Below the pieces are notes generated by a model, which saw only the letters and a program-made list of their open reading frames with translations, ran no database searches and was not told the DNA's origin. Both the position numbers and the translations under genes were made by a program. Source: an uncultured Bacteroidota bacterium (GTDB lineage: Bacteria > Bacteroidota > Bacteroidia > Bacteroidales > P3). From it: a stretch of 64,000 nt of DNA. Where the stretch lies: assembly GCA_902776365.1 (NCBI GenBank), contig CACYPU010000001.1, positions 1-64,000 on the forward strand. Reading direction: 5' to 3'. Every line of letters begins with the position of its first letter. Position 1 is the stretch's first letter. Below, in pieces: positions 2,485 to 61,948 of this stretch.

Positions 2485-2580
2485 GTATCGTTGTTCGATA
2501 GTTGTACGTTATTTGTCCGATAGTTGTCCGATAAATCATCGTACAAGTATCGTACAAGTATCGTACAAGTAACGTACAAA
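2485..2580. repeat. 11-bp tandem array with inverted arms
   Basis: The right half is three to four units of about 11 bp (GTACAAGTATC, with a last variant GTACAAGTAAC). The left half has units of TTGTCCGATAG type. TTGTACGTTA in the left half is the exact reverse complement of TAACGTACAA at the right end, so the array can fold on itself. It fills the 213-bp gap between the 3' end of the gene at 2604 and the etfB promoter. It is not a CRISPR: there are no spacers. Confidence 0.7.
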
Positions 2581-2603
2581 TGCTTATGGCAGAAAGGTGT
2601 ATC

Positions 2604-3512
2604 TCAGTCTTTTTGGCGTTCTTCGGTGCGAATCACTTGGAAGTTTTTGTTGTAGAAGTCGAGTTTGCCGTCGTAGCGTAGCATTACAGGGCCTTCTTCC
2701 CCCATGCCTACGTGTTCATCGTAGGTGAACGGGATGCGCACCTGTCCGCGGTAGTCGATGGCACCTGCGTTGACGCTGCCGTCGGCTTCCTGTCGGTAGG
2801 GGCACATCAGGCCTTCCGCGGGATAGCAGTTGCCATAGAGGGGGTTGGTGTTGAAGGGGCCGTACTGGGGCGGGACAATCTGGCGGCCGTTGCCGTCGAT
2901 GAGGCTCCAGCGGTAGCGGTCTTTCTCGTCGAAAGTGATTTTGGTGGCGGAATATTGGGCGTTTTCTTTCAGGGAGGCGTAGCGGGGCACCTCGATGACG
3001 GCGTAGAGGCCGTTGCCGGCTTCCGACCATCCGGTGTAGATCTTGCGGTTGATGGCCAGAGCCTTGAGTTGGCGGAGCATGGTGGCGGGGTCGAACGAGT
3101 AGGAGGTTCGGCCGTCGGTGTATTCCCGCAGGGCCTCGGCCTTCTGTTTCTCGAATTCCTTGTAGGCCTCGTCGAGTTGTGCTAGCAGCTCGGGGTTGTT
3201 CTTGAGCTGCTCGCGAGCCTGCTTGAGGCCGTCCTCCATCTCCTGCAGGTAGGAGGGCAGCGTCTGGTTGAGGTAGACCTGCATGATTTCCTCCTGCAGG
3301 GTGAGCAGGTTGTTGAAGATTTCCTCGTGGGCCTTCACCGTCTCTTCGGAGAAGAGCATATATTGCAGCAGGGCGTTGTTTTCATCGGTGCTGCCGGAGG
3401 CCACAAAATTGACCCAGGAGACATCGATCCAACTGGGAGGTTCCTGTTCTTCCTGCGCCGTTGCCGCAAGGCAGAAAGCGGCGAGGAGGAGGGTGAGAAA
3501 ACATTTTTTCAT
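2604..3512 (-). CDS. Exported WG-repeat-like protein
   Basis: 302 residues with a clear signal peptide (MKKCFLTLLLAAFCLAATAQ, cleavage after TAQ). Residues about 55-125 are strongly charged and helical, a likely coiled coil. The C-terminal part (about 165-295) has degenerate WG-type repeats, seen as RYRWSLIDGNGRQIVPPQYG and later DYRGQVRIPFTYDE. WG repeats occur in many secreted Bacteroidota proteins of unknown role. The gene starts 4 bp after the stop of the OmpA-domain gene at 3517, so the two form one transcript driven from the promoter at 4630-4637. No enzymatic motif is visible. Confidence 0.75.
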   Translation of the reverse strand: MKKCFLTLLLAAFCLAATAQEEQEPPSWIDVSWVNFVASGSTDENNALLQYMLFSEETVKAHEEIFNNLLTLQEEIMQVYLNQTLPSYLQEMEDGLKQAREQLKNNPELLAQLDEAYKEFEKQKAEALREYTDGRTSYSFDPATMLRQLKALAINRKIYTGWSEAGNGLYAVIEVPRYASLKENAQYSATKITFDEKDRYRWSLIDGNGRQIVPPQYGPFNTNPLYGNCYPAEGLMCPYRQEADGSVNAGAIDYRGQVRIPFTYDEHVGMGEEGPVMLRYDGKLDFYNKNFQVIRTEERQKD

Positions 3513-3516
3513 AACG

Positions 3517-4596
3517 TTATTTCTTTACGAATTCTACACGGCGGTTCTTGGCGCGGCCTTCTTCGGTGGTGTTGGGTGCGATGGGGGAGTGCGAGCCTTT
3601 GCCCACGGCGGTGAGGCGCGATTTATCGATGCCCTTCTCCACGAGGGCGTTCACGATGGCTTCAGCGCGCTTCTGGGAGAGCGGGTCGTTGACGGCGTCG
3701 GAACCGGTGTTGTCGCAATGGCCTTGCACCTCGAAGCTGAGGTCGGGATGCTCCTGCATGAGCTTGGCCACGCGGTTGATTTCGATGACGGATTCCGGTT
3801 TGAGGTCGGCTTTGCCGGTCTCGAAGGTGATGGCGTAGGAGACGATCTTGCCGTCGGAGGTCAGGCGGTCGTAGAGGGGCACGGCGCCTTTGCAGATACG
3901 AACGTTCTTGATGAAGAAGCGGTCTTTCTCTTCGCAGTTGGAGATGGACACCATCTTTATGCGGGTGGGACGCGCCACATTGGGGAGGTTTATCAGACGG
4001 GTGCCGTTGATATAGTATTTAAAGGCGCGCTTGTTGAACGAGGCGGACACATGGAGCCAGGTGTTGGCCTTGATGAGAGGGTCGAGGAGTTCGCCTTTGG
4101 CGCTGCCTTCGCGGCTATCGCCCGTCGGGGGCTGGAAAGTGTAGACGAGAGCGGCGTGGTCGCCCTCGTTGGGAGTGTTGTTGACGGCGGGGTTGAGGTC
4201 CACACGGACGATGCCGTCGGGGTATTCTTCCGAGTAGAGATCCAGACGAAGCCAGTCGTTATCGCTGAAGCCTAGGGTGGCGTTCGACCATACGTCGAAC
4301 TCGACGGTGAATTCCTCGGGCAGGTAGTTGGCTTGCTTCATCAGCGGGCCGATTTCGCTGTACCAGCCGGAGAGTTTGATGGCCTGAGCCCCTTTGTGGT
4401 TGACGATTTCGCACTCCTCGCCGGCAAGGAAGTCCCAATGCGACGGGAATTCGCCCAGTTTTTCCTTCTCTACAGGGTCGTCGAAGATGATTTCGTCGCC
4501 CGGGACGAAATCGCTCTTGGCGTAGTTGGTTTCCTGCGCATTTACAGCCAATCCGGCGAATAGGAGCAGCGCTGCTGCAAATAATGTTTTTTTCAT
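3517..4596 (-). CDS. OmpA-family protein with N-terminal lectin-like domain
   Basis: 359 residues. The ATG at 4594-4596 is chosen because it begins a signal peptide (MKKTLFAAALLLFAGLAVNAQ) and lies 33 bp inside the promoter; an in-frame upstream start lies in the promoter-leader region. Residues about 30-230 form a beta-rich domain (EFDVWSNATLGFSDNDWLRLDL, WLHVSASFNKRAFKYYINGTR) that looks like a concanavalin/LamG-type sandwich. Residues about 255-359 are an OmpA peptidoglycan-binding domain: SYAITFETGKADLKPES, then EVQGHCDNTGSDAVNDPLS and KNRRVEF. It probably links the outer membrane or a periplasmic ligand to peptidoglycan. It is cotranscribed with the WG-like protein and divergent from the glucan synthase. 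Confidence 0.85.
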   Translation of the reverse strand: MKKTLFAAALLLFAGLAVNAQETNYAKSDFVPGDEIIFDDPVEKEKLGEFPSHWDFLAGEECEIVNHKGAQAIKLSGWYSEIGPLMKQANYLPEEFTVEFDVWSNATLGFSDNDWLRLDLYSEEYPDGIVRVDLNPAVNNTPNEGDHAALVYTFQPPTGDSREGSAKGELLDPLIKANTWLHVSASFNKRAFKYYINGTRLINLPNVARPTRIKMVSISNCEEKDRFFIKNVRICKGAVPLYDRLTSDGKIVSYAITFETGKADLKPESVIEINRVAKLMQEHPDLSFEVQGHCDNTGSDAVNDPLSQKRAEAIVNALVEKGIDKSRLTAVGKGSHSPIAPNTTEEGRAKNRRVEFVKK

Positions 4597-4629
4597 ATTG
4601 TTGTTATTTTTCGTTCTTATTTTAAAGTG

Positions 4630-4637
4630 CAAAGTTA
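4630..4637 (-). promoter_or_regulatory. -7 promoter element for OmpA-family operon
   Basis: Minus-strand TAACTTTG followed by CAC, matching TAnnTTTG, 33 bp upstream of the ATG at 4596. It shares a 135-bp divergent intergenic region with the glucan synthase promoter. Confidence 0.65.
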
Positions 4638-4672
4638 CGAAAAAGTTTTTGAACTGTCCCTAAAAAATTTTT

Positions 4673-4731: not shown

Positions 4732-7700
4732 ATGAAGAATATTTATAATGAGTTCAGGAATAGCGTAAAGGAGATTACGCGGTATTATATGCTGCTGGTG
4801 GAGGAGACGCGAAACCAGCGGCTGGTGGGTAGCACCAACGAGTGGGTGCTCGATAATTATTACATGATTAGTGAGCAGGAGAAGGTGATGAAGGAGGAGT
4901 TGAAGGGAATACGGAATTCGGAGTTCGGAGTGAGGAAAGAGCGTCAAGAGGTGTTGTGGGGATTGCTGGAAGGCTATCTGCGCAAGTGCCATCATCAAGT
5001 GGACAAGACGCTGTTCTTCCGCTATCTGAGTCAGGTGCAGGTGAAGGGGAAGGATTATCTGAGCTATCCGGAGGTGTGTGCGTTGCTGCCGCTGACGAAG
5101 GCCATCCTGATAAAGGAACTGGCGGATTTGTGCCGGAGACTGGAGGAGGAGAAGAGTTACCATTATATGCCGACAGACCGCAGTCAGGCCGATATGGACC
5201 AGCTTGACAGAGCGGCGCAGGAGAACCTGCAGATGATGAACACCTTCAATTCGCTGAAGAAACTGACGCGCCTGCCGGTATCGGAGCTTATCGACGCCGT
5301 GAGCTTTTCGGAAAGGATGCTGAAGGGCGAGAAAGCCGGTATGTATGACGAGATGCAGGACAAGACGAAGGAGGACTATCGGGCGAAGGTGGTGAGGTTG
5401 TCCAAGGCGAAAGGTGAAAGGTCAAAGGGGAAAGGTAATGCGGAGTATGCGTTTGTGAAGGCGTTGGTGGAGAAGGCAGACGAACGGGGTGAGCATGTGG
5501 GGTGGCAGCTGTTCCCACCGAAGCGCTGGAAGGCCCGTGCGCACAGCTATATCTGGATTGTGGCTGTGGTATCGTTGCTCTTAGCGGCGGGATTCGGATT
5601 GTGGGTTGTCAACGGTTTTGATTTTCAGTTTTTAGTTTTCAATATCATCTTGACTTTGTTGCTGTGGGTGCCGATGAGCCAGGTGGTGATAGACCTGTTC
5701 AACTGGCTGCTGGGTAAGTTACATCGGCCGATGGGGACCTTCAAGATGAAGTTCAAGGAGGGCTTGATTCCCGAGGAATACGCCACGATGGTGATTATGC
5801 CGACCATCTTGAAGAACAGGGCGAAGGTGGAGGAACTGCTGGGGGTGCTGGAGGTGTACTACCTGAGCAATATCAATCGAGGCGAGGGGAAAGTGGGAAG
5901 TCAAGGAGTGCAAGACAAGAGTAATCCTTCGCAGAATCTGTATTATACGTTGGTGGGTGATGCGGCTTCGTACAAGGAGGCCGATGCGCCGTGGGACGAC
6001 GAGGTGGTGGAGGCCGGATTGGCGAAAGTGAAGGAGCTGAATGAGAAGTACGGCGCCCATATCTTCAATTTCGTCTACCGCAAGCGTGCTTGGAGCGAGG
6101 GCGAACAGACGTGGCTGGGATACGAGCGCAAGCGCGGCGCGATACTGCATTTCAATGACCTCGTGCTGGGAAATACAAGTGAGGAGGAGAAAGAGGTGCG
6201 GTTCAGGTGCGAGACGATATCTTCATGGTTGGACACCCAAGGAGTGCGGAGGAGTGCAAGGGAGTACAAGGGAGTGCAAGACAATACCCATAAGAGTCCG
6301 ATACAGTTTATTATCACGCTGGACACCGATACGGAGTTGGTGCTTTATTCGGCGCAGAAGTTGATAGGTGCGATGGCGCATCCGTTGAACCGTGCGCAGT
6401 TGAGCGCGGACGGCCGCAGGGTGGATCGTGGCTACGGCATCATGCAGCCGAGGGTGAATGTGGATGTGGAGGTGACGAATAAGAGCCGCTATGCGCAGTT
6501 GTTTGCGGGCTTGGGCGGCTTGGATGTATATACGACGGCGAGTTTCGAGCTGTATCAGGATATTTTCAATGAGGGAAGTTTCTGCGGAAAGGGTATCTAC
6601 GACCTTAGGGTGTTCCAGAGGGTGCTGAAAGGTACGTTCCCGGAGAACCTCATACTGAGTCACGACCTCATCGAAGGATGCCATATCAGGTGTGGCCTCA
6701 TCAACGATGTGGAACTCTTCGACGACAATCCGAGCAACTGGATTGACGACGCCAAGCGTCATCATCGCTGGACGCGTGGCGACTGGCAGATTATTGCGTG
6801 GCTGAAGAAGAGGGTGAAGAACGAGAGTGGCGAGAAGGTGAAGAACCAAGTGAACACCATCGGCAAGTGGAAGATATTTGACAACCTGCGCCGTTCGGTG
6901 CTCAGCTTGAGTTTGGTTGTGGCTATCCTTGTGGGTTACATCCTATCAACTTTCAATTCTCAATTTTCGATTTCACCCTTCTGGTTTGTGGTGGTGGCGT
7001 TGGTGGCGGTGGCGAGCCCGATTGTGTTCTTCATAGTCGGACAGGTGACGAAGGTGCCGAAGTTCGGGAAGCGTTACCGCTATTATATGACGCTGATACG
7101 AGGTTTCAATGTGATTATTTACCGGAGTTTGGTGCAGTTTGCATTGTTGCCGAAGGAGGCGTGGATGTACACAGACGCTGCGGTGCGGGCGTGCTACCGG
7201 ATGTGGTTCTCGCATCGGAACCTGCTGGCATGGATTACGAGTGACGAGGCCTCGAAGAGCACAAAGGGTACTTTGGGCGACTATATCGGGAAGTTCTGGG
7301 TGAACTATGTAGTGAGTGCGGCTTTGGTGGTGCTGGGAGTGGTCACTGGCCAGTGGCCCGTGCTCAGTTGGATAGGTGTTGGATTCTGTGTGGTGACGTG
7401 GTGCGGGGCACCGCTGCTGATGTTCTGGCTGGGCAAGAAGTTCCCGCAGGACAAGAAGAGCCTGAATGCGAAGGAGACGGACGAGGTGAGGAGGCTGGCG
7501 CAGAAAACATGGGGCTTCTTCGACTATCTGATTACAGAGGAGACCAACTGGCTGATACCGGACAATTACCAGTTGAACCGCGAGAAGAAGACGGATTATA
7601 AGACGAGTCCGACGAATATCGGCTATTCGCTGACGGCCATCGTTAGCGCCGCTGAACTGGGATTCATCACGGAGAAGGCCGCCCTGACGCGCATTGACCA

Positions 7701-10700: not shown

Positions 10701-12423
10701 GCGCAACGTATACCACCCCATCTACCACGACCAGGTGGTATGCCTGACAGCCACCGAGCCTCTCACCGACATCTCGCTCAACTACCCCAACCGCAAGCGT
10801 TTGGGTCTCAATGTGAACATCCCTGCCAAGGGAGAGGAGGAGATGGCTTTTGTGATTGAAGTGGAGAGCAAGGAAGTACAAGGGAGTGCAAGGGAGTGCA
10901 AGACAATGGAGGCTATCAACGCCGAGTTCGATAAGGTGGTCGATTACTGGGACGAGAAACTCTCCTTTATCCAGGTGGAGACTCCCGACCCGGCATTCAA
11001 CAACATGCTCAACCGGTGGTATCTATACCAGGTCTATGCCTCGCGTCTCTTTGCCCGTGCCGGTTTCTATCAAGTAGGTGGCGCCACAGGCTTCCGCGAC
11101 CAGTTGCAAGATGTGATGTCGCTTCTCTATAGCGACCCCACATACGCTCGTCGGCAGATTCTCGACCATGCCGCTCACCAGTTCCCCGAGGGCGACGTGC
11201 TGCACTGGTGGCACCAGAGCCTCCAGCTCGGCGCTCGCACCACCTTCTCCGACGACTACCTCTGGCTTGTCTTTGTCACCTACCAATATGTGCAGGTCAC
11301 AGGCGACCGCTCCATCCTCGAAGAGATGGTTCCCTTCTGTCAGGCCGATCAGCTGGCTCCCGGCGAGGCCGAGCGTGGCTTGAACTATGCTCAGGGCCAG
11401 GAGAAAGCCTCTCTGTATGAGCATTTGCGTCGTGCCGTGAACCGTTCGATGAGCCGCACGGGTGTCCATGGGCTTCCGCTGATGGGTTGTGGCGATTGGA
11501 ACGACGGCATGTCCGCTGTAGGTGTCGAGAATAAGGGTGAGAGCGTATGGGTGGCCTTCTTCTTGGCCGACCTCCTTCCGAAGATGGAGCAACTCACACA
11601 GATGGTGCCGGGTGCCGACTTGGGCTATTGCGAGGAACTCTCGGCATTCCACAAGAATCTCGTCGATGCCATCCAGAAGCATGCATGGGATGGTGCATGG
11701 TTCCTCCGGGCCTACTACGACAATGGTGACCCCATGGGTTCACGCAACAACATCGAGTGCCAGATCGACCTCATCTCCCAGGCGTGGTCCATCCTCACCG
11801 ATGTCGCCACCCCACAGCAGAAGGACTCTGTCTTCCGCGAGACAGACAACCGCCTCGTCAATCGCGAACATGAAATCATCCAGCTTCTCACTCCCGCCTT
11901 CCGCGCATCGCAGCCTTCTCCAGGTTATATAATGAATTATCCCGTCGGTGTCCGCGAAAACGGTGGCCAGTACACCCACGGTGCCATGTGGTACATCATG
12001 GCGGAACTGAAGGAAGGCCGTAACGATATTGCCTACTACCTCTACTCCATCATCAATCCTATCCACCGCACACAAACCCTCGCTGATGTGCTGAAGTACA
12101 AGGTGGAACCCTACTGTATTGCTGCCGACATCTACAGCAATCCGCAGCATCCAGGCCGAGGGGGATGGACCTGGTACACAGGCTCCGCCTCGTGGGCATA
12201 CAAGACGGGTATCGAAAACATCCTCGGCTTCCACAAGGTCGGCGACCAACTGACCATCGACCCGCGCATCCCCAGCGAATGGCCGTGTTTCACCGTTCGT
12301 TATCGCTATGGTTCCGCTGTCTATGTTATCAACTGCAGCAGACAAGGCAACGGGATGGAAACAGGTGGTGTAATCACTCTTGTCGACGATGGTCAAGTGC
12401 ACAATTTAGAAATAAAAATTTGA
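4732..12423 (+). CDS. Cyclic beta-1,2-glucan synthase-like protein (GT84-GH94)
   Basis: 2563 residues from the ATG at 4732 (an upstream in-frame ATG lies in the promoter). By similarity to NdvB/Cgs it would polymerise glucose from UDP-glucose on a protein-bound primer in the inner membrane and release a cyclic beta-glucan. Membrane pairs appear at about residues 275-325, 720-775 and 855-900. The glycosyltransferase part (about 480-720) has LDTDTE (about 530), SHDLIEGCHIRCG and HHRWTRGDWQ, the D, ED and QxxRW-like motifs. A middle region (about 940-1340) has the glucoamylase/GH189-like block WGISETAYNELDDAQN. The C-terminus is GH94: GATGFRDQLQDVMSLLYSDP (about 2125) and GDWNDGM (about 2257). 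At least eight short tandem arrays are translated in loops. It is a single-gene unit. Confidence 0.85.
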   Translation: MKNIYNEFRNSVKEITRYYMLLVEETRNQRLVGSTNEWVLDNYYMISEQEKVMKEELKGIRNSEFGVRKERQEVLWGLLEGYLRKCHHQVDKTLFFRYLSQVQVKGKDYLSYPEVCALLPLTKAILIKELADLCRRLEEEKSYHYMPTDRSQADMDQLDRAAQENLQMMNTFNSLKKLTRLPVSELIDAVSFSERMLKGEKAGMYDEMQDKTKEDYRAKVVRLSKAKGERSKGKGNAEYAFVKALVEKADERGEHVGWQLFPPKRWKARAHSYIWIVAVVSLLLAAGFGLWVVNGFDFQFLVFNIILTLLLWVPMSQVVIDLFNWLLGKLHRPMGTFKMKFKEGLIPEEYATMVIMPTILKNRAKVEELLGVLEVYYLSNINRGEGKVGSQGVQDKSNPSQNLYYTLVGDAASYKEADAPWDDEVVEAGLAKVKELNEKYGAHIFNFVYRKRAWSEGEQTWLGYERKRGAILHFNDLVLGNTSEEEKEVRFRCETISSWLDTQGVRRSAREYKGVQDNTHKSPIQFIITLDTDTELVLYSAQKLIGAMAHPLNRAQLSADGRRVDRGYGIMQPRVNVDVEVTNKSRYAQLFAGLGGLDVYTTASFELYQDIFNEGSFCGKGIYDLRVFQRVLKGTFPENLILSHDLIEGCHIRCGLINDVELFDDNPSNWIDDAKRHHRWTRGDWQIIAWLKKRVKNESGEKVKNQVNTIGKWKIFDNLRRSVLSLSLVVAILVGYILSTFNSQFSISPFWFVVVALVAVASPIVFFIVGQVTKVPKFGKRYRYYMTLIRGFNVIIYRSLVQFALLPKEAWMYTDAAVRACYRMWFSHRNLLAWITSDEASKSTKGTLGDYIGKFWVNYVVSAALVVLGVVTGQWPVLSWIGVGFCVVTWCGAPLLMFWLGKKFPQDKKSLNAKETDEVRRLAQKTWGFFDYLITEETNWLIPDNYQLNREKKTDYKTSPTNIGYSLTAIVSAAELGFITEKAALTRIDHIIDTVGRLEKWNGHLYNWYDINTLKALPNFFISTCDSGNFVACLYVVKGWLMGVQGVQEVQGLLEKVERLIAQTDFRKLYNPELDVFSIGYDTTNYTLLPYHYNNFASEARLTSFLTIAQGDAPYKHWFCLDKTLVQYQGYKGVASWYGTLFEYFMPLIFLPTYKHTLMDETYSFAIRAQRSFFPSPWGISETAYNELDDAQNYKYHAFGVPYLKFQNTTPDRIVVSPYSSLMTIGIDDRAVYENIRQFKKLEMYDDFGFYESYDEEDKVPVKAHYAHHQGMILASLANYLGDHCLQRYFMQEPAMKSMETLLKEKAQVRPYIDLKVTQYKRYRYSKVQTESDARDFDTIANVPELGIISNGQYTVLMNDRGSGFSRYRNILLGRYRKISADHYGTYVYIRNLRTDHLWCNTYAPLDVMPQGYHVSFASDKMSFLRVDDGVETKTEVTVLKDRSAEIRRLTFTNNSSEDVDLELTTYGEVVLAPSAEDENHRVFNGMKVLSEYDAEHQTLLFSRPGSFGTRNFMLHKLWVSDPSDKSDRSDVVEYETSRVKFIGRGNSLRHADVIDNRRNLSGTVGTTLDPVMSMRRRVHVPVDKSVEAYILTGFAKAKEHLLQLTEQYRSSVDVEHAFKTASVFNNMRTSMSLLKGSQMRLYSSISKYMAQTATLGNERQAILAKNTLSQSGLWRFGISGDLAILLMEIDSMERSGFAKEMLRAFEYYKVHGMRLDLVFINDAPEREREGLMHFIRNMANTEHLWAEHSEAGKVYVLDGHELSEAERILLRTVARLTFNTSDGITIAEQLRRLEIVNQHYQDKVEYPILKPKKEFRVWSNLEFYNQYGGFDREGRDYVVTNTNTPMPWVNVMANEQHFGCIVSSTMAGFTFAHNAQQFKLTGWSNDIVRDNASEMLLINKQQFLPATARHGQGWSAFDAEYDDMKVAVRVFVACDKPEKYYQIKVVNKTETPMEVQLDMVYKLVLGMCEEQTARYLYSEWNEQDNTLRVRNVYHPIYHDQVVCLTATEPLTDISLNYPNRKRLGLNVNIPAKGEEEMAFVIEVESKEVQGSARECKTMEAINAEFDKVVDYWDEKLSFIQVETPDPAFNNMLNRWYLYQVYASRLFARAGFYQVGGATGFRDQLQDVMSLLYSDPTYARRQILDHAAHQFPEGDVLHWWHQSLQLGARTTFSDDYLWLVFVTYQYVQVTGDRSILEEMVPFCQADQLAPGEAERGLNYAQGQEKASLYEHLRRAVNRSMSRTGVHGLPLMGCGDWNDGMSAVGVENKGESVWVAFFLADLLPKMEQLTQMVPGADLGYCEELSAFHKNLVDAIQKHAWDGAWFLRAYYDNGDPMGSRNNIECQIDLISQAWSILTDVATPQQKDSVFRETDNRLVNREHEIIQLLTPAFRASQPSPGYIMNYPVGVRENGGQYTHGAMWYIMAELKEGRNDIAYYLYSIINPIHRTQTLADVLKYKVEPYCIAADIYSNPQHPGRGGWTWYTGSASWAYKTGIENILGFHKVGDQLTIDPRIPSEWPCFTVRYRYGSAVYVINCSRQGNGMETGGVITLVDDGQVHNLEIKI
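4911..4932 (+). repeat. In-frame repeat in glucan synthase: GGAATTC-type
   Basis: Short units of CGGAATTCGGAGTTCGG translated IRNSEFGVR near residue 62. A similar, inverted motif appears in porU at about 54625-54658 (HSEFRM). Confidence 0.5.
5405..5437 (+). repeat. In-frame repeat in glucan synthase: AAAGGTG family
   Basis: Four to five units of 7-8 bp (AAAGGTG, AAAGGTC and variants) translated KAKGERSKGKG. The same family, same orientation relative to the gene, occurs in radA at 16073. Confidence 0.75.
5888..5929 (+). repeat. In-frame repeat in glucan synthase: GGAGTGCAAG family, copy 1
   Basis: Short copy ending in CAAGACAA, translated VGSQGVQDKS. The same 3' end closes the arrays at 6238, 10870 and 38205. 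Confidence 0.7.
6238..6284 (+). repeat. In-frame repeat in glucan synthase: GGAGTGCAAG family, copy 2
   Basis: Four 10-bp units (GGAGTGCAAG, GGAGTACAAG) ending CAAGACAA, translated QGVRRSAREYKGVQDN. It lies just before the LDTDTE motif, in a stretch where a loop is expected. Confidence 0.8.
6946..6975 (+). repeat. In-frame TTTCAAT array in a membrane loop
   Basis: Four 7-bp units (ACTTTCA, ATTCTCA, ATTTTCG, ATTTCA) translated LSTFNSQFSIS between two membrane helices of the glucan synthase. Confidence 0.6.
7858..7892 (+). repeat. In-frame 9-bp array in glucan synthase
   Basis: Three units GTTCAAGGA, GTTCAGGAA, GTTCAAGGA translated GVQGVQEVQG. Confidence 0.65.
9292..9324 (+). repeat. In-frame TCTGACNNN array in glucan synthase
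   Basis: Three to four 9-bp units translated SDPSDKSDRSD, a polar loop. Confidence 0.65.
10870..10906 (+). repeat. In-frame repeat in glucan synthase: GGAGTGCAAG family, copy 3
   Basis: Three 10-bp units ending CAAGACAA, translated EVQGSARECKTM. Three units of 10 bp give a 10-residue period in any frame. Confidence 0.8.
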
Positions 12424-15957: not shown

Positions 15958-17357
15958 TGGCAAAAGCGAAGACATACTACTTCTGTCAGGAGTGCGGCTA
16001 CCAGAGCAGCTCGTGGCTGGGGCGCTGCCCTGAGTGTGGCAAGTTCGGTACCTTTGCAGAGGAGTTGGTGGGAGGTGAAAGGTTAAAGGCTAAAGGTGAA
16101 AGACGCGCCGGCATGTCAGTTCCACAACGGATACAAGAGGTAAAGTATAGCGAGACCAAACGTATCCCGACACACTGCGGCGAGTTCGACCGTGTATTGG
16201 GAGGTGGTATAGTCCCCGGATCTCTTCTCCTCCTCGGTGGTGAGCCCGGCATCGGAAAAAGTACCCTCCTCCTCCAGACGGCCCTCTCTATCACTCAAAC
16301 AATCAAACAATCAAGCAATCAAGCTATCCGTCTCCTCTACGTCAGTGGTGAGGAAAGCGAGCAGCAGATCAAGATGCGGGCCGACCGACTTACCTCCGAC
16401 CTCCAACCTCCGACCTCCGAATTGTATGTGGTCAGCGAGACGGTCACGCAGCGCATCTTCGAGCATGTCGACGCTGTGCAGCCTGACCTGCTGATTATCG
16501 ACTCCATCCAAACCATCTCCACCGAGGATATCGACTCGCCTGCCGGCAGTGTCAGCCAGATCCGCCAGTGTACTACCGAATTCCAACACTATGCCAAGAG
16601 CACCGGTGTCCCTGTGTTGCTCATCGGCCACATCACCAAAGACGGCACCCTCGCGGGTCCCAAGGTGATGGAACATATCGTCGATGCTGTCCTCCAGTTC
16701 GAGGGCGACCGCAACTACGGTTACCGCATTCTGCGGGCATTGAAGAATCGCTTCGGCTCCACCGCTGAGATAGGCATCTTCGAGATGCTCGGCAGCGGCC
16801 TTCGAGAGGTACCCAACCCCAGCGAGTTTCTGTTAAGCCAGCGTGACGAGACGCTTAGTGGCGCTGCCGTCGCCGCCACGCTAGAAGGCGCCCGTCCGAT
16901 GTTTATTGAGGTGCAAAGCCTCGTCAGCAGTGCCGTTTACGGCACTCCGCAGCGCAACGCCAACGGCTTCGACATGCGCCGACTCTCGATGTTGCTGGCC
17001 GTGTTGGAGAAACGTTGCGGTTTCAAACTCGGCGCCAAGGATGTTTTCCTCAACATCGCCGGTGGCCTTCGCGTCAACGACCCCGCCATCGACCTCGCCG
17101 TTGCCTGCGCCATCCTCTCCTCTAATGTCGATATCCCTATTTCGCCGCGCATCGCCTTTGCCGCCGAACTGGGTCTCTCCGGCGAGGTGCGCCCGGTGGC
17201 ACGTGTCGAGCAGCGCGTCGCCGAGGCCGACCGACTCGGATTCGAGAAAATATTCGTCTCCAAGTACAACCTTCGCGAACTCGACAAAAAACGGTACCAC
17301 ATCGAGGTGGTACCGGCAAGTGTTATCGAAGAGGCCTTCCGCGCCCTCTTCGCCTAA
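15957..17357 (+). CDS. radA: DNA repair protein RadA/Sms
   Basis: 466 residues. RadA is a RecA-like helicase/branch-migration ATPase in recombinational repair. Zinc finger CQECGYQ...RCPECGKF (Cys10, 13, 24, 27), Walker A GGEPGIGKST (about 93-102), the RadA-specific KNRFGS motif (about 262) and a Lon-type C-terminal domain (about 300-460) are present. The length is near normal, but three short repeats add residues: GERLKAKGERR after the zinc finger, TQTIKQSSNQAI after Walker A and TSDLQPPTSEL further on. Each sits where relatives have a variable loop. The gene overlaps its upstream neighbour by one base and converges with the gene at 17354 with a 4-bp overlap. Confidence 0.95.
   Translation: MAKAKTYYFCQECGYQSSSWLGRCPECGKFGTFAEELVGGERLKAKGERRAGMSVPQRIQEVKYSETKRIPTHCGEFDRVLGGGIVPGSLLLLGGEPGIGKSTLLLQTALSITQTIKQSSNQAIRLLYVSGEESEQQIKMRADRLTSDLQPPTSELYVVSETVTQRIFEHVDAVQPDLLIIDSIQTISTEDIDSPAGSVSQIRQCTTEFQHYAKSTGVPVLLIGHITKDGTLAGPKVMEHIVDAVLQFEGDRNYGYRILRALKNRFGSTAEIGIFEMLGSGLREVPNPSEFLLSQRDETLSGAAVAATLEGARPMFIEVQSLVSSAVYGTPQRNANGFDMRRLSMLLAVLEKRCGFKLGAKDVFLNIAGGLRVNDPAIDLAVACAILSSNVDIPISPRIAFAAELGLSGEVRPVARVEQRVAEADRLGFEKIFVSKYNLRELDKKRYHIEVVPASVIEEAFRALFA
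16073..16106 (+). repeat. In-frame AAAGGTG array in radA
   Basis: Four 7-bp units (GGTGAAA, GGTTAAA, GGCTAAA, GGTGAAA) translated GERLKAKGER between the zinc finger and the ATPase domain. Confidence 0.8.
16293..16327 (+). repeat. In-frame CAATCAAA array in radA
   Basis: Four 8-bp units (CAAACAAT, CAAACAAT, CAAGCAAT, CAAGCTAT) translated TIKQSSNQAI just after the Walker A helix. Confidence 0.8.
16392..16420 (+). repeat. In-frame CTCCGAC array in radA
   Basis: Four 7-bp units (CTCCGAC, CTCCAAC, CTCCGAC, CTCCGAA) translated TSDLQPPTSEL. Confidence 0.8.
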
Positions 17358-21506: not shown

Positions 21507-22643
21507 GTGAGCAAAAAAGGGAATGAATTGAAGCCGAGGATAGGCTTCTTCGGCCGTCGCAATGTGGGCAAGAGCACGATGATCAACTGGTTGACGGGTC
21601 AGCAGATTGCCATCGTGAGCGACACCGCCGGCACCACCACTGACCCCGTGCGCAAGAGCATGGAGATTGGCGGCATAGGTCCCGTGGTGTTGATAGACAC
21701 CGCCGGCATTGACGACGAGGGCGAGTTGGGCAGGATGCGTGTGGAGAAGAGCATGGCGGCATTGGCCGAGGTGGACCTGGCGTTGCTGCTCTACACCGAA
21801 GGCTGCTACGGCGAGCCCGAGGAGAGGGTAGAGAGGTGGTGCACCGAGCACGGCACGCCGATGCTGAAGGTGCTCACCAAGGAGGCTCCCATTGACAAAG
21901 AGAAATTCATAGAACAGATAAAGAAAGCGCTGCCGGAGAGCGCCTACCGTGGGCGTTCGCTGCTGGGAGACGTTGTGGGTCAGGGAGATACCGTGGTACT
22001 GGTGACGCCCATCGACTCGTCGGCTCCCGAGGGAAGGATGATTCTGCCGCAGGTGCAGGTGCTGAGGAATTTGATGGATATCCACGCACAGGCATTCTTC
22101 TGCCAGCCGGAGGAGTTGCCGTCGACGCTGGCGGCTCTGAAAGGGGCGCCGCAGCTGGTGGTCACCGACAGCCAGGCTTTCCAGAAGGTGGCAAAGATTG
22201 TCCCCGACGAGGTGCCGCTGACTTCGTTCAGCGTGGTGCTGGCGCGACAGAAGGGCCTCTTCAAAGAGTATCTGGAAGGGACACGGAGGATTGGCGAGCT
22301 GAAGGACGGCGACCGGGTGCTGCTGTTGGAGAGCTGCACGCACAACGTGACCTGCGAGGACATCGGCCGTGTGAAGTTGCCGGCGGCACTGAGGAAAGCT
22401 ACGGGGAAGGAACTGCAATTTGAAATTATTGGTGGCGCATCGACTGCTACCCACTACCCACTCTCCACTACCCACTATAAACTCGTCATCCAGTGCGGTG
22501 GTTGCGTGATTACCGCTCAGCAGGTGAAGGCAAGGCTGCTGCCTGCCTTGGAAGCTGGTGTATCGGTGAGCAACTACGGCCTCGCCCTTGCCTGGTGCGG
22601 TGGCATATTTGAAAGAGCAACAAAGATTTTCAACAATGATTGA
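21507..22643 (+). CDS. hydF: [FeFe]-hydrogenase maturation GTPase HydF
   Basis: 378 residues, GTG start at 21507. HydF is the scaffold that assembles the 2Fe subcluster and delivers it to the hydrogenase. GTPase motifs are GRRNVGKST (G1, about 15), DTAGTTTDPV (G2) and DTAGID (G3). The iron-sulfur ligands are in LLESCTHNVTCEDIGRVKLP (about 270) and VIQCGGC (about 330), followed by SNYGLALAW. A 7-bp repeat is translated as TATHYPLSTTHYK directly before the CGGC strand. HydE and HydG are not in the window. The stop region overlaps the folA start by 8 bp, so the two are coupled. Confidence 0.95.
   Translation: MSKKGNELKPRIGFFGRRNVGKSTMINWLTGQQIAIVSDTAGTTTDPVRKSMEIGGIGPVVLIDTAGIDDEGELGRMRVEKSMAALAEVDLALLLYTEGCYGEPEERVERWCTEHGTPMLKVLTKEAPIDKEKFIEQIKKALPESAYRGRSLLGDVVGQGDTVVLVTPIDSSAPEGRMILPQVQVLRNLMDIHAQAFFCQPEELPSTLAALKGAPQLVVTDSQAFQKVAKIVPDEVPLTSFSVVLARQKGLFKEYLEGTRRIGELKDGDRVLLLESCTHNVTCEDIGRVKLPAALRKATGKELQFEIIGGASTATHYPLSTTHYKLVIQCGGCVITAQQVKARLLPALEAGVSVSNYGLALAWCGGIFERATKIFNND
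22447..22480 (+). repeat. In-frame CCACTAC array in hydF
   Basis: Four to five 7-bp units (ACCCACT, ACCCACT, CTCCACT, ACCCACT) translated THYPLSTTHY. The same family lies in mutS2 (32989) and twice in ribF (35009, 35588). Confidence 0.85.
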
Positions 22644-23172: not shown

Positions 23173-23183
23173 ATGCGTTAGTA
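23148..23183. repeat. Array of the GACTAACGCATT family (inverted)
   Basis: Reverse complement of the units at 47022, 60833 and 60963: ACTAACGCATTTACACATT. It spans the last codons of folA, its stop and the start of the spacer before cinA. Confidence 0.65.
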
Positions 23184-40279: not shown

Positions 40280-40285
40280 TAAATA

Positions 40286-44712: not shown

Positions 44713-45690
44713 ATGTCCGACAAAGAACATCTCGACCTCTTCGAGCAGAAATATAACGACTTGCGCAACGAAATGGCTAAAGTCATCGTGGGCCAGCAGG
44801 AAGCTGTCGACAGTCTCTTGCTCTCTGTCTTCACCGGTGGCCACTGCCTCCTCCTCGGTGTGCCGGGACTCGCCAAGACCCTTATGGTCAACACCCTGGC
44901 TCAAACCCTCGGCCTCACCTTCTCGCGCATCCAGTTCACACCCGACCTTATGCCCTCCGACATCACGGGCTCCGAAATCCTCGACCGTGAGCGCAACTTC
45001 AAGTTCATCCAGGGCCCTGTCTTTGCCGGCATCGTCCTCGCCGATGAAATCAACCGCACTCCTCCCAAGACCCAGGCCGCACTCCTCGAGGCCATGCAGG
45101 AACATCGTGTCACCGTCTCCGGCACCTCTTATCCCTTGCCCAATCCCTTCTTCGTCCTCGCCACACAGAACCCCATCGAGCAGGAAGGCACCTATCCGCT
45201 CCCCGAAGCTCAGCTCGACCGTTTCATGTTCAACGTACGCCTTGACTACCCCTCTTTTGAAGAAGAGATGCAGATAGTCCGTCAGACCACCGTCGACAGT
45301 GACATCCAGGTGCAGAAAATACTCTCTGCCGACGAAATCCTCGCCTTCCAGCAACTTATCCGCCGCATGCCTGTACCCGACAATGTCGTCGAATATGCCG
45401 TCCGTCTGGTAAGTAATACTCGTCCAAATACCCAGTCACTCAGTCACTCAGATACACAGTCACTCAATCGCTATATCTCCTGGGGCGCCGGTCCCCGAGC
45501 CTCCCAGTACCTCATTATGGGTGCCCGCACCTATGCCGCTATGCACGGCAAATACTCCCCCGACGCCGAGGATGTCCGCGCCGTCGCCTTCAATGTCCTG
45601 CGCCATCGCATCGTACGCAACTACTATGCCGAAGCCGAAAACATCTCCACCGACCAAATCATCAATGAACTGTTGAAAGATGAAAAGTGA
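44713..45690 (+). CDS. MoxR-family AAA+ ATPase
   Basis: 325 residues. Walker A LLLGVPGLAKTLMV (about 45), Walker B GIVLADEINRTPPKTQAALLEAM (about 108), Sensor 1 FVLATQNPIEQEGTYPLPEAQLDRFMF (about 150-175). MoxR ATPases are chaperones that activate metal or von Willebrand-domain proteins. No VWA gene follows here, unlike many MoxR loci. An 8-bp CAGTCACT array is translated TQSLSHSDTQSLN near residue 245, a loop before the C-terminal lid. It may be cotranscribed with the SurA genes. Confidence 0.93.
   Translation: MSDKEHLDLFEQKYNDLRNEMAKVIVGQQEAVDSLLLSVFTGGHCLLLGVPGLAKTLMVNTLAQTLGLTFSRIQFTPDLMPSDITGSEILDRERNFKFIQGPVFAGIVLADEINRTPPKTQAALLEAMQEHRVTVSGTSYPLPNPFFVLATQNPIEQEGTYPLPEAQLDRFMFNVRLDYPSFEEEMQIVRQTTVDSDIQVQKILSADEILAFQQLIRRMPVPDNVVEYAVRLVSNTRPNTQSLSHSDTQSLNRYISWGAGPRASQYLIMGARTYAAMHGKYSPDAEDVRAVAFNVLRHRIVRNYYAEAENISTDQIINELLKDEK
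45430..45468 (+). repeat. In-frame CAGTCACT array in moxR
   Basis: Four 8-bp units (CAGTCACT, CAGTCACT, CAGATACA, CAGTCACT) translated QSLSHSDTQSLN. Confidence 0.85.
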
Positions 45691-45712
45691 GAGGTGAAAG
45701 GTGAAAAAAAGA
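45676..45712 (+). repeat. GGTGAAA array at the moxR stop
   Basis: GATGAAAAGTGAGAGGTGAAAG: 7-bp units AAGTGAG, AGGTGAA, AGGTGAA spanning the last codons of moxR and its stop. Confidence 0.65.
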
Positions 45713-45738
45713 AGATGACCATCTAAGAGTGCGTTCAT

Positions 45739-47025
45739 ATGAGAGAAATGAAATCCATAATAAAATCATTTATTATTGCGATAGCAATACCTTTCACCTT
45801 GTGCCTTTCACCTTTCACTTTGCAGGCCCAGTCCGGACTCTATGTCCCTTCGGCCAAGCCTGTCAAAAACATCCAGAAAGCCCTCACCAACCCGCCTACC
45901 TTCCACCTCCTGCTTTCCTATCACGGCAATGACTCCTCCTACTCTGTCAACGACCTCGACCTGCTCGACTCCGCCTACCGCATTGCTTTCGACATCGACA
46001 ATCCCAACTACTACACCATGACTGTCGAAAGCTATGGCAACGCCGACGACTCCTTGGGACAACGTCGTGTCGACGGCGTGGTGCGCTATTTCGCCGGCCG
46101 AAGCTATGCTCCCTTCCCCATCCGCATGGCTCACAACCCCATACGGTGCTCTTGTCACGGCGACACCGTCGAAACACTTCGTTTCGAAGTGCCGCTGGCC
46201 ACCGCCGTCTACAATTGCTCCGAGCTGCCTGAGGCTCGCCGCCTCCTCAACAAAAGCATCCCCTTGGAGAACACCGTCCTCGTCACCTTCACCAACAACC
46301 CCGACGAGTGTCTCGGCACCGCTCGCGGATGCTTCGTGCCGTCGTCCGACAGCATCGTCCGTGGCTATTATGCCACCCTCTTCCTCACCCGAGGCTCCGT
46401 CTATTCTATCGAAGGAACCAAGGACACCTGCCCCGGGGGACTCGAAATCTCTATTGAAGACCACCTCAACTACCGTCAGATAGTCGAACGCTACCGCCTC
46501 ATCCCGCATCCCAAGCAGATTCTTGTGCAGGCCGGCTACATTGTCATCAAAAGCAATTTCGGCCGTGGGGCCGACGAGTGCGAGCTGGAGCAGAAAGACT
46601 CTGTCTTCGTCCGCATCCCCGCCACCGCCGAACAGCTGGCGGCAAAACTGAAATTCTTCGCCAAAGTGAAGACCTCCCGTGGCTTGGAATACAAAGCTCT
46701 GCCCACACGCAAGTTGCCCGGCAAGGGCGACCTGGTGCTGCAGGCACCCATCAGCGTCGACCAGTTCGACACCATCTATCTCGGCAAGCGCATCCAGGAA
46801 AAGGAACTCGACGACTATTTTTATGAGGTCGACAGCCCCACCGAGGCCGCTGCCTTCGCTGTCGGCAAGCACTTCTTCGTCGCCTACCGTGTCGACAAAC
46901 ATGGACAATATAACCTCAAGCGCCCCCTCCGCGACCTCTTCCGCATCGTCCCCGAACAGGAAGAAGAGCTCGAACAACCCGCTGAACACAAAGAACTCAA
47001 GGGCGAGGAAATCATCGAAGACTAA
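45739..47025 (+). CDS. Exported protein of unknown function
   Basis: 428 residues. The start could be the ATG at 45739 or 45748. The signal peptide (residues 1-31) contains a CACCTTT-family array (translated [14 protein letters not shown]). The mature protein has [26 protein letters not shown], which resembles the core of an OmpA/MotB-like helix pair, a Cys-rich part ([15 protein letters not shown]), and [19 protein letters not shown]; the end is acidic ([17 protein letters not shown]). No family is recognised. It lies between moxR (48 bp) and panB (19 bp), so it is probably part of the same run. Confidence 0.7.
45790..45828 (+). repeat. CACCTTT array in a signal peptide
   Basis: Units TTTCACC, TTGTGCC, TTTCACC, TTTCACT, all 7 bp, translated [11 protein letters not shown]. 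Confidence 0.8.
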
Positions 47026-55576: not shown

Positions 55577-55614
55577 GATTATTAATTTTCAATTTTCAAT
55601 TTTCAATTTTCAAT
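55577..55614. repeat. TTTTCAA array upstream of porU
   Basis: Five perfect 7-bp units TTTTCAA in the porU 5' region, AT-rich and unlikely to be a terminator. The 455 bp between porU and the Rhs gene (55550-56007) otherwise hold the small ORF at 55750 and two divergent promoters. Confidence 0.8.
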
Positions 55615-55749
55615 TGTATACTAACCCACTACCCCATAACGCTACAATTAATTAATTATTGTGCAGCAAGGCTCTTCGTCCTTTTTACTTTCCAAACTCG
55701 TTTATATTCGTTTGAATATTCCTTTTTTTATAACGTCTAAAACAAAGTT

Positions 55750-60873: not shown

Positions 60874-60884
60874 AAAGAGTGTTT

Positions 60885-60961
60885 GGCCCCGTAGTTCAGC
60901 TGAATAGAACGTCGGATTCCGGTTCCGAAAGTCGTGGGTTTGAATCCCGCCGGGGTCACCA
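60885..60961 (+). tRNA. tRNA-Arg (anticodon CCG)
   Basis: Cloverleaf folds by eye: acceptor GGCCCCG/CGGGGTC, D stem GTTC/GAAC, anticodon stem TCGGA/TCCGA with loop TTCCGGT (anticodon CCG at positions 34-36), T stem GTGGG/CCCGC, discriminator A and encoded CCA. It reads CGG codons. It is flanked on both sides by the same tandem repeat family. Confidence 0.95.
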
Positions 60962-60962
60962 A

Positions 60963-61008
60963 AGACTAACGCATTAACACATTAACGCATTAACGCATTA
61001 ACACATTA
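60963..61008 (+). repeat. GACTAACGCATT family, right of tRNA-Arg
   Basis: GACTAACGCATTAACACATT followed by more TAACGCAT and TAACACAT units (about 8-9 bp), directly to the ATG of the next gene. Longest copy of this family. Confidence 0.85.
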
Positions 61009-61866
61009 ATGAAGCGTTCCTCCCATCCATTCATGCACTTGCTGGTGCTGGCGCTGTGGTCGCTGGTGCTGATGGTCGTTGCCGTCGTCGCCGGCGCCGC
61101 TCTCGGCATTTCCGGCACCCCTTCAGTCACGCAGTCGCACGGTCACGCAGCCGTCTTCCTGCTCTGGAATGTCGCCGTGCAGCTGCTGACCTTCGCCCTG
61201 CCGGTGGTGCTGGTGACGTGGATGTACTATCGTGACAATCAGCGCGATTTCTATCGGATGGACTTCGGCCGTCGGCGCTGGATGCTCGCCTTGGCGGGTG
61301 TGGCGGTGCTCCTGTTCCTGGTGCCGCTCACCGACTGGCTCACCACCTGGAACGACAGCTGGACGCTCCCCGAAGGCCTCCGCAAGGTCGGCGAGGAGTC
61401 GCAGCAGACGGTGGAAGCCCTGATGAAAGAATGCCATCCGCTGCTCGGCCTCTTCGGCCTGGCCCTGATTCCGGCGCTCTGCGAGGAGCTCTTCTTCCGT
61501 GCGGGCGTGCAGAATCTGTTGCGCCGCTGGTTCAAGAATCCCCATGCGGCGGTATGGGTGGCGGCGGCCATCTTCAGCCTCGCCCACTTCGAGCTCTCCG
61601 CCTTCCTGCCGCGTTTCTTCCTCGGCGCCCTCCTTGGATACCTCTATCTCTACGGCCGCTCGCTCTTGGTCAACGTCACGGCCCATTTTGTCAACAACGC
61701 CATCATAGTCCTGGCCTATGCCATTGCCGCCGATGGAAACTCGGGGTTCGACCCCTCCGCCCCGCTCGCCGTCCCCCCGCTGCTCACCGTCGCCTGCATC
61801 CTCGTCGCCGCCGCCCTCTTCTATGGGGTCTTCCTTCGCCACAAGTCCTTCCCTGAGACAGAATGA
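61009..61866 (+). CDS. CPBP-family intramembrane metalloprotease
   Basis: 285 residues, about eight helices. CPBP/Abi motifs: ALCEELFFRAGVQNLL (EExxxR, about 158-163), FSLAHFELSAFLPRFFLGALLGYL (FxxxH, about 200) and NVTAHFVNNAIIVLA (HxxxN). Such proteases process prenylated or other membrane proteins, or protect against bacteriocins. The start codon directly abuts the tandem array at 60963-61008, which therefore forms its leader. Downstream (61867-62113) is an AT-rich gap with the array at 61912 and the HU promoter. Confidence 0.9.
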   Translation: MKRSSHPFMHLLVLALWSLVLMVVAVVAGAALGISGTPSVTQSHGHAAVFLLWNVAVQLLTFALPVVLVTWMYYRDNQRDFYRMDFGRRRWMLALAGVAVLLFLVPLTDWLTTWNDSWTLPEGLRKVGEESQQTVEALMKECHPLLGLFGLALIPALCEELFFRAGVQNLLRRWFKNPHAAVWVAAAIFSLAHFELSAFLPRFFLGALLGYLYLYGRSLLVNVTAHFVNNAIIVLAYAIAADGNSGFDPSAPLAVPPLLTVACILVAAALFYGVFLRHKSFPETE

Positions 61867-61911
61867 TAATCGGCTAAAAATTAGTCGGTAATAGGGCGAA
61901 AGGACCCAAAA

Positions 61912-61948
61912 TGGGAATTAAGAATTGAGATTTAAGGATTAAGAGGTG
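61912..61948 (+). repeat. AATTAAGAATTGAG array
   Basis: 7-bp units AATTAAG, AATTGAG, ATTTAAG, GATTAAG, between the CPBP gene and HU. Same family as 40286. Confidence 0.65.

What the first reader, a model, noticed from the sequence alone, without database searches (positions are those of the whole stretch)
2485..61948. Short tandem arrays of 7-11 bp spread through both spacers and housekeeping genes
Seen directly: more than thirty degenerate arrays (3-5 units), many in frame in radA (3), mutS2 (2), ribF (2), hydF, cinA, moxR, a nitrilase, a mannosidase and a glucan synthase (about 8). 7, 8, 10 and 11 are not multiples of 3, so an array encodes one cyclic peptide in every frame (7 bp gives a heptapeptide); it is tolerated as long as that strand has no stop. 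They sit at places where loops or signal peptides are expected. I infer a genome-wide process that inserts or grows such units. I know of no description of it.
Basis: partly seen in the sequence, partly recalled or inferred. Interest (0 to 1): 0.92.

Follow-up and report, generated by a model that had tools for sequence, protein, structure and literature searches.

The report
Hairpin tandem-repeat elements overrunning a genome
The genome of this gut bacterium and its relatives is peppered with tiny tandem-repeat patches, often paired into hairpins, that recur at many sites, fill gaps between genes and flexible parts of essential proteins, and differ from species to species at the same site, apparently through a copying process that is not yet known.

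Summary
My scan finds 34 arrays of period 7-11 in the window, and shuffles give almost none; 458 kb of the contig hold 281 (period 7-12). The reading "a process inserts or grows short units" is partly right. Units are not born locally: the same heptamers recur at many loci (619 same-unit pairs against 13.5 expected). Many arrays are arms of R-array/core/Y-array hairpin elements (about 60-140 bp) in spacers between co-directional genes; others stand singly inside genes. In related species the same slot (hydF, radA, spacers) often carries other units or none. In one spacer with flanks 95.5% and 91.5% identical, the whole element differs between two species, and each species has two near-copies of its element within about 2 kb. 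Best reading: dispersed, non-autonomous repeat elements copied between loci and turned over quickly. The kind is known (heptamer repeats of cyanobacteria, Xanthomonas and Beggiatoaceae; in-frame Rickettsia palindromes); mixed periods, non-G units and slot-by-slot unit exchange make it a new variant. The copying enzyme is unknown: reverse transcriptase was found in 5 and Y1 transposase in 15 of 22 genome handles searched.

The parts
2490..2579 (.). 11-bp inverted array pair (GTTGTACGATA-type)n aatc (ATCGTACAAGT)n, a hairpin in a spacer; G036 lacks exactly one 11-bp unit at 2523
   Evidence: fold -39.2 kcal/mol, z -8.0
4906..4931 (+). 7-bp array in the large ORF, identical in G036
6240..6280 (+). 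10-bp array (GGAGTGCAAG family) followed by half core GACAAT, inside the large ORF
10869..10902 (+). 10-bp array plus half core GACAAT inside the large ORF
16073..16096 (+). 7-bp array (AGGTGAA type) in the N-terminal part of radA
16295..16328 (+). 8-bp array (TCAAACAA) in radA, 27 bp (9 aa) longer than in the 5 relatives aligned here
   Evidence: slot survey; an 8-residue gap in 5lkm at this place
16392..16420 (+). 7-bp array (ACCTCCG) in the radA slot that holds other repeats in other species
   Evidence: gaps of 1 and 3 residues in 5lkm at this place
22447..22477 (+). hydF slot, 31 bp (ACCCACT); 31 bp in G023 (same unit), G001, G002, G036 (other units) and G012 (degenerate); 22 bp without array in 7 relatives
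23148..23175 (+). 8-bp array just upstream of cinA; 32 bp (4 units) longer than in 8 of 13 relatives
23871..23902 (+). 7-bp array (ACTTTCC) in cinA; several relatives hold other repeats at the same slot (by eye)
29138..29198 (.). 11-bp inverted pair (pyrimidine arm first) in a convergent spacer; the unit AAAGAACAATG again at 47892-47925
32031..32105 (.). 7-bp R..Y array pair inside mutS2, open in frame; relatives hold pairs with other units (by eye)
35013..35045 (.). perfect (AGTGGGT)4.7 array in ribF (gene on the minus strand)
35586..35614 (.). (AGTGGGT) array in ribF, 29 of 29 letters shared with G036, absent in G002, G023, G008 and G004
40284..40420 (+). R arrays after a stop codon, core, and a Y array that lies in a signal-peptide-like N-terminus of the next gene; G036 and G002 hold other units in the same spacer
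45674..45818 (+). R array (TGAAAGG) across the stop codon and Y array (CCTTTCA) in a signal-peptide-like N-terminus of the next gene
55584..55615 (.). 7-bp array (AATTTTC) upstream of porU
60967..61009 (+). 8-bp array (TAACGCAT)5 five bases behind tRNA-Arg (60885-60961); absent in G036

Best explanation
The arrays are members and remnants of a class of dispersed, non-autonomous repeat elements. A full element is a hairpin of about 60-140 bp: a purine-rich array of 7-11-bp units, a short core, and a pyrimidine-rich array, in about half the cases the complement of the first. SHOWN: units recur far beyond chance. Pairs favour the order R then Y. Orthologous spacers and slots in genes often carry different units or none in different species. 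In one spacer the whole element differs between two species while both flanking genes stay similar, and in each species near-copies of one element occupy two spacers 1-2 kb apart. One shared element differs by exactly one 11-bp unit. INFERRED: elements spread by copying from locus to locus (ectopic gene conversion or replication template switching between repeat hairpins, or a transposase in trans); arms are homogenised and change length by slippage and hairpin-templated copying; selection leaves them where harmless: after stop codons, between co-directional genes, in signal peptides and loops, in frame, mostly with the pyrimidine strand as coding strand. Stems of 30 bp or more in mRNA spacers may affect processing, but no function is needed to explain the pattern.
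For: Recurrence: 157 period-7 arrays of 49 canonical units; 619 same-unit pairs vs mean 13.5, maximum 30, in 500 draws of local 7-mers; (AGTGGGT)3 with <=2 mismatches has 64+74 overlapping matches in G000, 0 for the reversed control. Pairing at gaps <=120 bp: RY 38 vs YR 10 in G000, 18 vs 6 in G036; complementary units in 18 of 38 and 5 of 18 RY pairs vs 3.1 (max 11) and 0.8 (max 4) with shuffled partners; four hand-picked elements fold at -23 to -73 kcal/mol, z -4.8 to -9.5. Core family GACAAAT..ATTGTC: 7 of 8 matches in C1 and 2 of 4 in G036 lie between arrays. Turnover: of 65 orthologous G000/G036 spacers, 45 hold arrays in either: same unit 6, different 16, G000 only 15, G036 only 8. Element swap at C1 131020-131139, flanks 191 of 200 and 183 of 200 identical; the G000 element there is 88.9% identical over 117 bp to that of the neighbouring spacer 129755-129879, which G036 shares; G036 has its 7-bp element twice, at 95754-95839 and 97918-98001. 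One-unit change at 2523. Slots: hydF; radA second slot with nine canonical 7- or 8-bp units in eight genomes. Frame: 21 of 24 length differences are multiples of 3. Strand: period-7 coding arrays 41 pyrimidine-rich, 17 purine-rich, 10 mixed on the coding strand.
Against: No enzyme identified. No fixed target-site duplication seen; one 6-7-bp candidate (AATGAG at 66776-66886). Only 9 of 62 alignment gaps of >=5 bp near arrays are whole multiples of the unit, so simple slippage is a minor part or alignments are poor there. Similar cores were found for only some pairs of elements, so for several unit families a common element is not shown; 20 of 38 RY pairs in G000 are not complementary. At 74757 a same-unit pair encloses what looks like native gene sequence, and at 68371 the G036 array seems to start in native sequence; a single mobile element explains neither. 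Neighbouring arrays in the opposite order exist (10 in G000, 4 of them 11-bp with 11-bp or 12-bp partners). Near-copies could partly reflect recombination between species.
Confidence: 0.55

Rival explanations
1. REPIN/MITE-type transposition: a Y1 (RAYT-like) or other transposase in trans moves the hairpins.
For: Hairpin elements with inverted arms, half-elements in genes, Y1_Tnp present in 15 of 22 handles searched, REP-like palindromes (by eye) in the same radA slot in relatives, one candidate direct repeat at an insertion.
Against: G000 shows one Y1_Tnp match that lacks the first 39 profile positions although it is array-rich. 7 of 22 handles show none, among them G019 and the L093 genome, which carry arrays; the genomes are drafts. 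No fixed end sequence or fixed target duplication seen.
Confidence: 0.2
2. Telomerase-like repeat addition: a reverse transcriptase with a short A-B-A' RNA template adds repeats at breaks, as DRT10 makes tandem-repeat cDNA.
For: Preferred array phases with the same three letters at both ends, e.g. 5 of 6 arrays of the TAACGGT family; mirror R..Y order; precedent in PMC12632851 (abstract, section 8 and passages seen).
Against: RVT_1 is found in 5 of 22 handles and not in G002, G001, G023 or the L086 genome, all rich in arrays. The G000 RT is a UG24-type defence RT beside a DnaG-like gene. The 49 canonical heptamers in one contig would need many templates. RTs too divergent for the Pfam model cannot be excluded, and no templating RNA was searched.
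Confidence: 0.06
3. Local replication slippage of short seeds, with selection only on where arrays survive.
For: A polymerase-slippage preference for heptamers has been proposed (cited in PMC4692102, discussion read). One exact 11-bp unit difference. Purine-rich arrays often start at the stop codon of the upstream gene: of those starting within -30..60 nt of it, 28 of 91 (G000) and 10 of 47 (G036) start at 0-5 nt. At 68371 the G036 array begins in sequence that G000 also has.
Against: The same units recur at unrelated loci, and in most empty sites viewed in relatives I do not see the unit (by eye).
Confidence: 0.08
4. Selected RNA elements: intercistronic hairpins that end transcription, protect or process mRNA, or G-quadruplexes.
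For: Density between co-directional genes 36 per 10 kb vs 9.7 convergent and 13.4 divergent, purine arrays just after stop codons, strong folds. Heptamers with GG keep closer to four units (60% at 4.0-4.75 copies vs 44% without GG).
Against: Heptamer arrays without GG (84) have the same median copy number, 4.43, as those with GG (73), so G4 is not required. Arrays also stand singly inside genes. Presence and unit of a spacer array are poorly conserved between species (same unit in 6 of 45).
Confidence: 0.11

Closest known systems
G-rich heptamer repeats of Xanthomonas and Nostoc (Rehm et al. 2015, PMC4692102; abstract and sections 3, 13, 14, 16 read)
   Same: Heptamers, about four units, singles and inverted pairs, mostly intergenic between aligned genes, purine strand just after or over stop codons, under-represented on the coding strand in genes.
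   Different: Here 84 of 157 heptamer arrays lack GG, periods run from 7 to 11, 49 canonical heptamers coexist in one contig, and unit and presence change at the same slot between species; in Xanthomonas 83% of the repeats were found again in the same gene context of a close relative.
TAACTGA direct repeats of Beggiatoaceae, cyanobacteria and five Bacteroidetes (MacGregor 2015, PMC4679880; abstract and section 10 read)
   Same: Short heptamer arrays, patchy distribution, 7-nt indels between relatives, presence in Bacteroidetes.
   Different: There one unit, in the type genome mostly just upstream of start codons; here many units, inverted pairs, slots inside genes.
P6b hairpin of the Nostoc tRNA-Leu intron (PMC4476775: abstract and passages; PMC3488679: passages seen)
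   Same: Hairpin whose arms are complementary seven-nucleotide repeats; two repeat classes exchanged at one locus with the structure kept.
   Different: One locus there; genome-wide here.
Rickettsia palindromic elements (review PMC10969869, passages seen; original papers not read)
   Same: Repeat elements of similar size inserted in frame in unrelated metabolic genes.
   Different: Those form families with a conserved peptide, not tandem arrays with changing units.
REP/REPIN with RAYT (recalled) and DRT10 tandem-repeat cDNA (PMC12632851, abstract, section 8 and passages seen)
   Same: Dispersed hairpins; enzymatic synthesis of short tandem repeats.
   Different: The enzymes are missing from several array-bearing drafts of this group.

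Membership tests
Bacterial heptamer SSR/STRR class | Tandem units of 7 bp, about four copies, dispersed over the genome | tested here: met
   Period 7 is the largest class, 157 of 281 arrays; median 4.57 copies for the 127 with score >=13
Bacterial heptamer SSR/STRR class | Restricted to 7-bp units | tested here: not met
   Periods 8, 9, 10, 11 also occur: 35, 41, 13, 26 arrays
G4-forming heptamers (Rehm 2015) | G-tracts in the unit explain the four-unit preference | tested here: not met
   84 of 157 heptamer arrays lack GG, with the same median 4.43; but 4.0-4.75 copies in 44% of them vs 60% with GG
G4-forming heptamers (Rehm 2015) | Location between aligned ORFs, purine strand after the stop codon, inverted pairs | tested here: met
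[quoted passage not shown]
   Same unit in 6 of 45 spacers; G000 and G036 may be more distant than the two Xanthomonas
MITE | Terminal inverted repeats with fixed ends and target-site duplication | tested here: inconclusive
   Inverted arms yes; one 6-7-bp candidate duplication, others unclear
REPIN/RAYT | Full-length Y1 transposase in array-rich genomes | tested here: inconclusive
   G000 match lacks profile positions 1-39; none in 7 of 22 handles, 15 of 22 have one; drafts
REPIN/RAYT | GTAG/CGTC-type tetranucleotide tag at one end | not tested
   The tag is known to me here only from a title in a search listing
DRT10/telomerase-like synthesis | Reverse transcriptase in the array-bearing genomes | tested here: not met
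   RVT_1 in 5 of 22 handles; G000 RT is UG24; drafts, Pfam model only
DRT10/telomerase-like synthesis | Templating RNA with A-B-A' pattern | not tested
   No search made
Rickettsia palindromic element-like | In-frame insertion into unrelated housekeeping genes | tested here: met
   radA, hydF, cinA, mutS2, ribF
Rickettsia palindromic element-like | Conserved element sequence shared by all copies | tested here: not met
   Units and cores vary between and within species

The most novel reading that the evidence does not exclude
A dedicated, largely sequence-independent copying process writes hairpins and arrays of 7-11-bp repeats over spacers and protein loops across this genus, overwriting older arrays at the same slots, so that each species carries its own repeat dialect and its housekeeping proteins carry species-specific in-frame peptides.
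Probability: 0.25. Interest if true: 0.88.

Novelty: new variant of a known kind. Interest (0 to 1): 0.64.

Why it matters
Heptamer arrays of about four units have been noted in unrelated bacteria without a settled mechanism or function; G-quadruplexes were one proposed reason (PMC4692102). This genus (120 genomes of it searched) shows many units, several periods and empty, filled and differently filled versions of the same site, so the question of how such arrays are born, copied and removed becomes directly testable. It also shows housekeeping proteins, and what look like signal peptides, being rebuilt by repeat DNA in frame. It warns annotators: species-specific inserts in RadA, HydF or MutS2 here are probably repeat-derived, not functional domains.

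Tried and rejected
Local birth by slippage alone: disfavoured by unit recurrence. G-quadruplex as the reason for four units: not required in this genome. RT/telomerase-like addition: one RT in G000, of UG24 defence type; RVT_1 in 5 of 22 handles. RAYT: one match without its first 39 profile positions in G000, Y1_Tnp in 15 of 22 handles. A common word near arrays: A/T-rich, promoter-like (recalled motif) and array-like words enriched, no shared core. Fixed array ends: phases are preferred but flanks show no strong consensus. Stop-codon logic: purine-strand stops in period-7 units are 138 of 157 vs about 122 expected from shuffled letters, so composition explains most of it; pyrimidine-strand stops are not avoided, 56 of 157 vs about 32. 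A closely related strain to watch events: none among 120 genus genomes, best full-length radA identity 79%. Plasmid search: uninformative. Literature: searches; in the titles and abstracts listed I saw no description of such arrays in this genus; that covers one open-access library only. Gene ends come from my own simple codon-usage caller, so spacer and coding counts are approximate.

Rows dropped or limited: one search kept arrays of period 7-12 with both flanks aligned; one search showed 17 chosen arrays and dropped rows with unaligned flanks over 40/45 bp (G025 at hydF among them); one search used a lower array score (>=7), left 13 of 55 rows unresolved at the second radA slot and holds some genomes twice (e.g. 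L064/L146, L065/L147, L070/L168); one search dropped spacers outside 15-350 bp or whose flanks did not align within 25 bp; one search measured 36 of the 91 coding arrays offered; at least one genome seems to appear under two handles (G023 and G147 give the same Y1 hit). In one search the reversed control also matched a few times in G002, G005, G019 and G034. In one search, five other Bacteroidales loci gave 9.4 arrays per 100 kb.

Full report
What was checked. TRF finds 86 rows in the window at score 30. A self-match scan (score >=11) finds 44 arrays, 34 with period 7-11. At score >=12, 20 local dinucleotide shuffles give 0.00-0.05 per period for periods 7-11, where the window has 19, 2, 1, 2 and 4; periods 2-6 have none. 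On the larger sample the median array length is 32, 32, 37, 37 and 36 bp for periods 7 to 11 (arrays of score >=13).

How far it extends. On 458 kb of the same contig (C1; G000 is an unnamed draft of 2,230,681 bases, 89.65% complete) I count 281 arrays of period 7-12: 163 intergenic (27.2 per 10 kb) and 118 in genes (3.0 per 10 kb), by my own gene calls. Relatives of the same genus carry them too, with other favourite units. Around radA, 30 loci with RadA identity of 72% or more average 19.9 arrays (periods 7, 8, 10, 11) per 100 kb, very patchily (0 to 136); five other Bacteroidales loci give 9.4, 45 loci of Pedobacter, Sphingobacterium and others 1.8, and shuffles 0.0-0.3. Named relatives are mostly rumen and other gut Bacteroidales MAGs, Candidatus Colimorpha pelethequi among them.

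The units are shared, not local. The three-unit pattern of AGTGGGT with up to two mismatches has 138 overlapping matches in G000 and none for the reversed control; of 61 genomes 15 have it, G000 and 14 others, all of its genus. In C1, 157 heptamer arrays have 49 canonical units and 619 same-unit pairs; drawing heptamers from the local flanks gives 13.5 on average and 30 at most in 500 draws. The arrays therefore draw on a common stock.

They are often halves of hairpin elements. Neighbouring arrays within 120 bp are ordered purine-rich then pyrimidine-rich in 38 cases against 10 in the other order (G000), and 18 against 6 (G036). The right array complements the left one in 18 of 38 and 5 of 18 cases, against 3.1 and 0.8 when partners are shuffled. 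Some families have a conserved core, best seen in the 10-bp family GGAGTGCAAG with GACAAAT..ATTGTC between the arms; half-elements with GACAA lie inside genes. In G036 the same core carries an 8-bp array of another sequence. Four hand-picked elements fold strongly. Elements are densest in spacers between co-directional genes. Of purine arrays starting within -30 to 60 nt of a stop codon, 28 of 91 in G000 and 10 of 47 in G036 start 0-5 nt from its first base. Pyrimidine arrays can lie before or inside the next gene's N-terminus; two in the window read like signal peptide cores (by eye, no predictor run).

Slots turn over between species. In hydF the slot at 22447 is 31 bp with ACCCACT here and in G023, 31 bp with other units in G001, G002 and G036 and a degenerate one in G012, and 22 bp without an array in seven relatives. 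In radA the second slot holds nine canonical 7- or 8-bp units in eight genomes, palindromes (by eye) in others, and plain short loops in more (13 of 55 rows unresolved, some genomes twice); in the alignment to the solved RadA 5lkm the arrays at 16295 and 16392 fall where that chain has gaps. Of 45 spacers with an array in G000 or G036, only 6 share the unit. Of 36 coding arrays measured, 24 differ in length, 21 of them by a multiple of three, against 2 of 60 control segments.

Copying is visible. At C1 131020-131139 the flanks are 191 of 200 and 183 of 200 identical between G000 and G036, yet the spacer holds a 9-bp element in one and a 7-bp element in the other. The G000 element is 88.9% identical over 117 bp to the element of the neighbouring spacer 129755-129879, which G036 shares; in G036 the 7-bp element stands twice, at 95754-95839 and 97918-98001, with near-identical arms and a diverged loop. 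One shared 11-bp element differs by exactly one unit at 2523. At 66776-66886 an element of about 100 bp is present in G000 and absent in G036, with AATGAG on both sides.

Mechanism. The best reading is dispersed non-autonomous repeat elements, copied between loci, with arms homogenised and length-adjusted, and purged where they harm. Recurrence, near-copies and turnover are shown by comparison; the copying step and its enzyme are inferred. A reverse transcriptase is missing by the RVT_1 model in 17 of 22 handles, including the genome of the densest of the 30 radA loci, L086, and a Y1 transposase in 7 of 22; these are drafts, so neither DRT10-like synthesis (PMC12632851) nor RAYT is excluded, but neither explains the pattern as it stands. 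Slippage alone fails on unit recurrence. G-quadruplexes are not required, because heptamers without GG have the same median copy number, although those with GG cluster somewhat closer to four (60% against 44%). Strand bias: period-7 coding arrays are pyrimidine-rich on the coding strand 41 to 17, with 10 mixed, but the stop content of units mostly follows composition. Results against a single mobile element: 20 of 38 RY pairs are not complementary, the pair at 74757 encloses what looks like native gene sequence, and the G036 array at 68371 seems to start in native sequence.

Relation to known things. The closest are the heptamer repeats of Xanthomonas and Nostoc (PMC4692102), which share location, polarity, inverted pairs and about four units; TAACTGA arrays (PMC4679880); the Nostoc intron hairpin with exchanged heptamer classes (PMC4476775, PMC3488679); and in-frame Rickettsia palindromes (PMC10969869). 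The case here adds several periods, many units without G-tracts, slot exchange across a genus and presence in housekeeping proteins. I rate it a new variant of a known kind.

Limits. The genomes are drafts, many of them MAGs by title. G000 and G036 are different species (median identity of 200-column windows 80.5% over aligned DNA), so single events are inferred. Gene calls are my own. A whole-genome count is extrapolation (about 1,400 arrays if C1 is typical).

Noticed in passing
L063 1299-7619 (G000 C3 about 50299-56619): A UG24-type reverse transcriptase (1126 aa, with an HD-CE domain) near a DnaG-like gene, a candidate DRT defence locus, followed by a HEPN/RES-domain gene.
   Followed up: partly
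window 56001-60000: GC content drops to 0.39-0.45 against about 0.52-0.60 in the other 2-kb windows, which suggests an acquired segment.
   Followed up: no
window 4702-12423: A 2573-aa ORF without any NCBIfam hit that holds five arrays of period 7-11.
   Followed up: no
L156 and L151 (radA of G004 and G107): A REP-like palindrome (CTCCCCTCTC..GAGAGGGG type, by eye) sits in frame in the same radA slot that carries tandem arrays in other species.
   Followed up: partly
G000 C1 154462-154651: An unusually long 8-bp array (190-bp spacer, TAACGCAT and TAACACAT units mixed) where G036 has no spacer.
   Followed up: no
G000 C1 2635-5182 and 23 other segments: Segments of 199-2547 bp with windows of at least 95% identity to G036 against a median of 80.5%, suggesting recent exchange between species or strong conservation.
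   Followed up: partly
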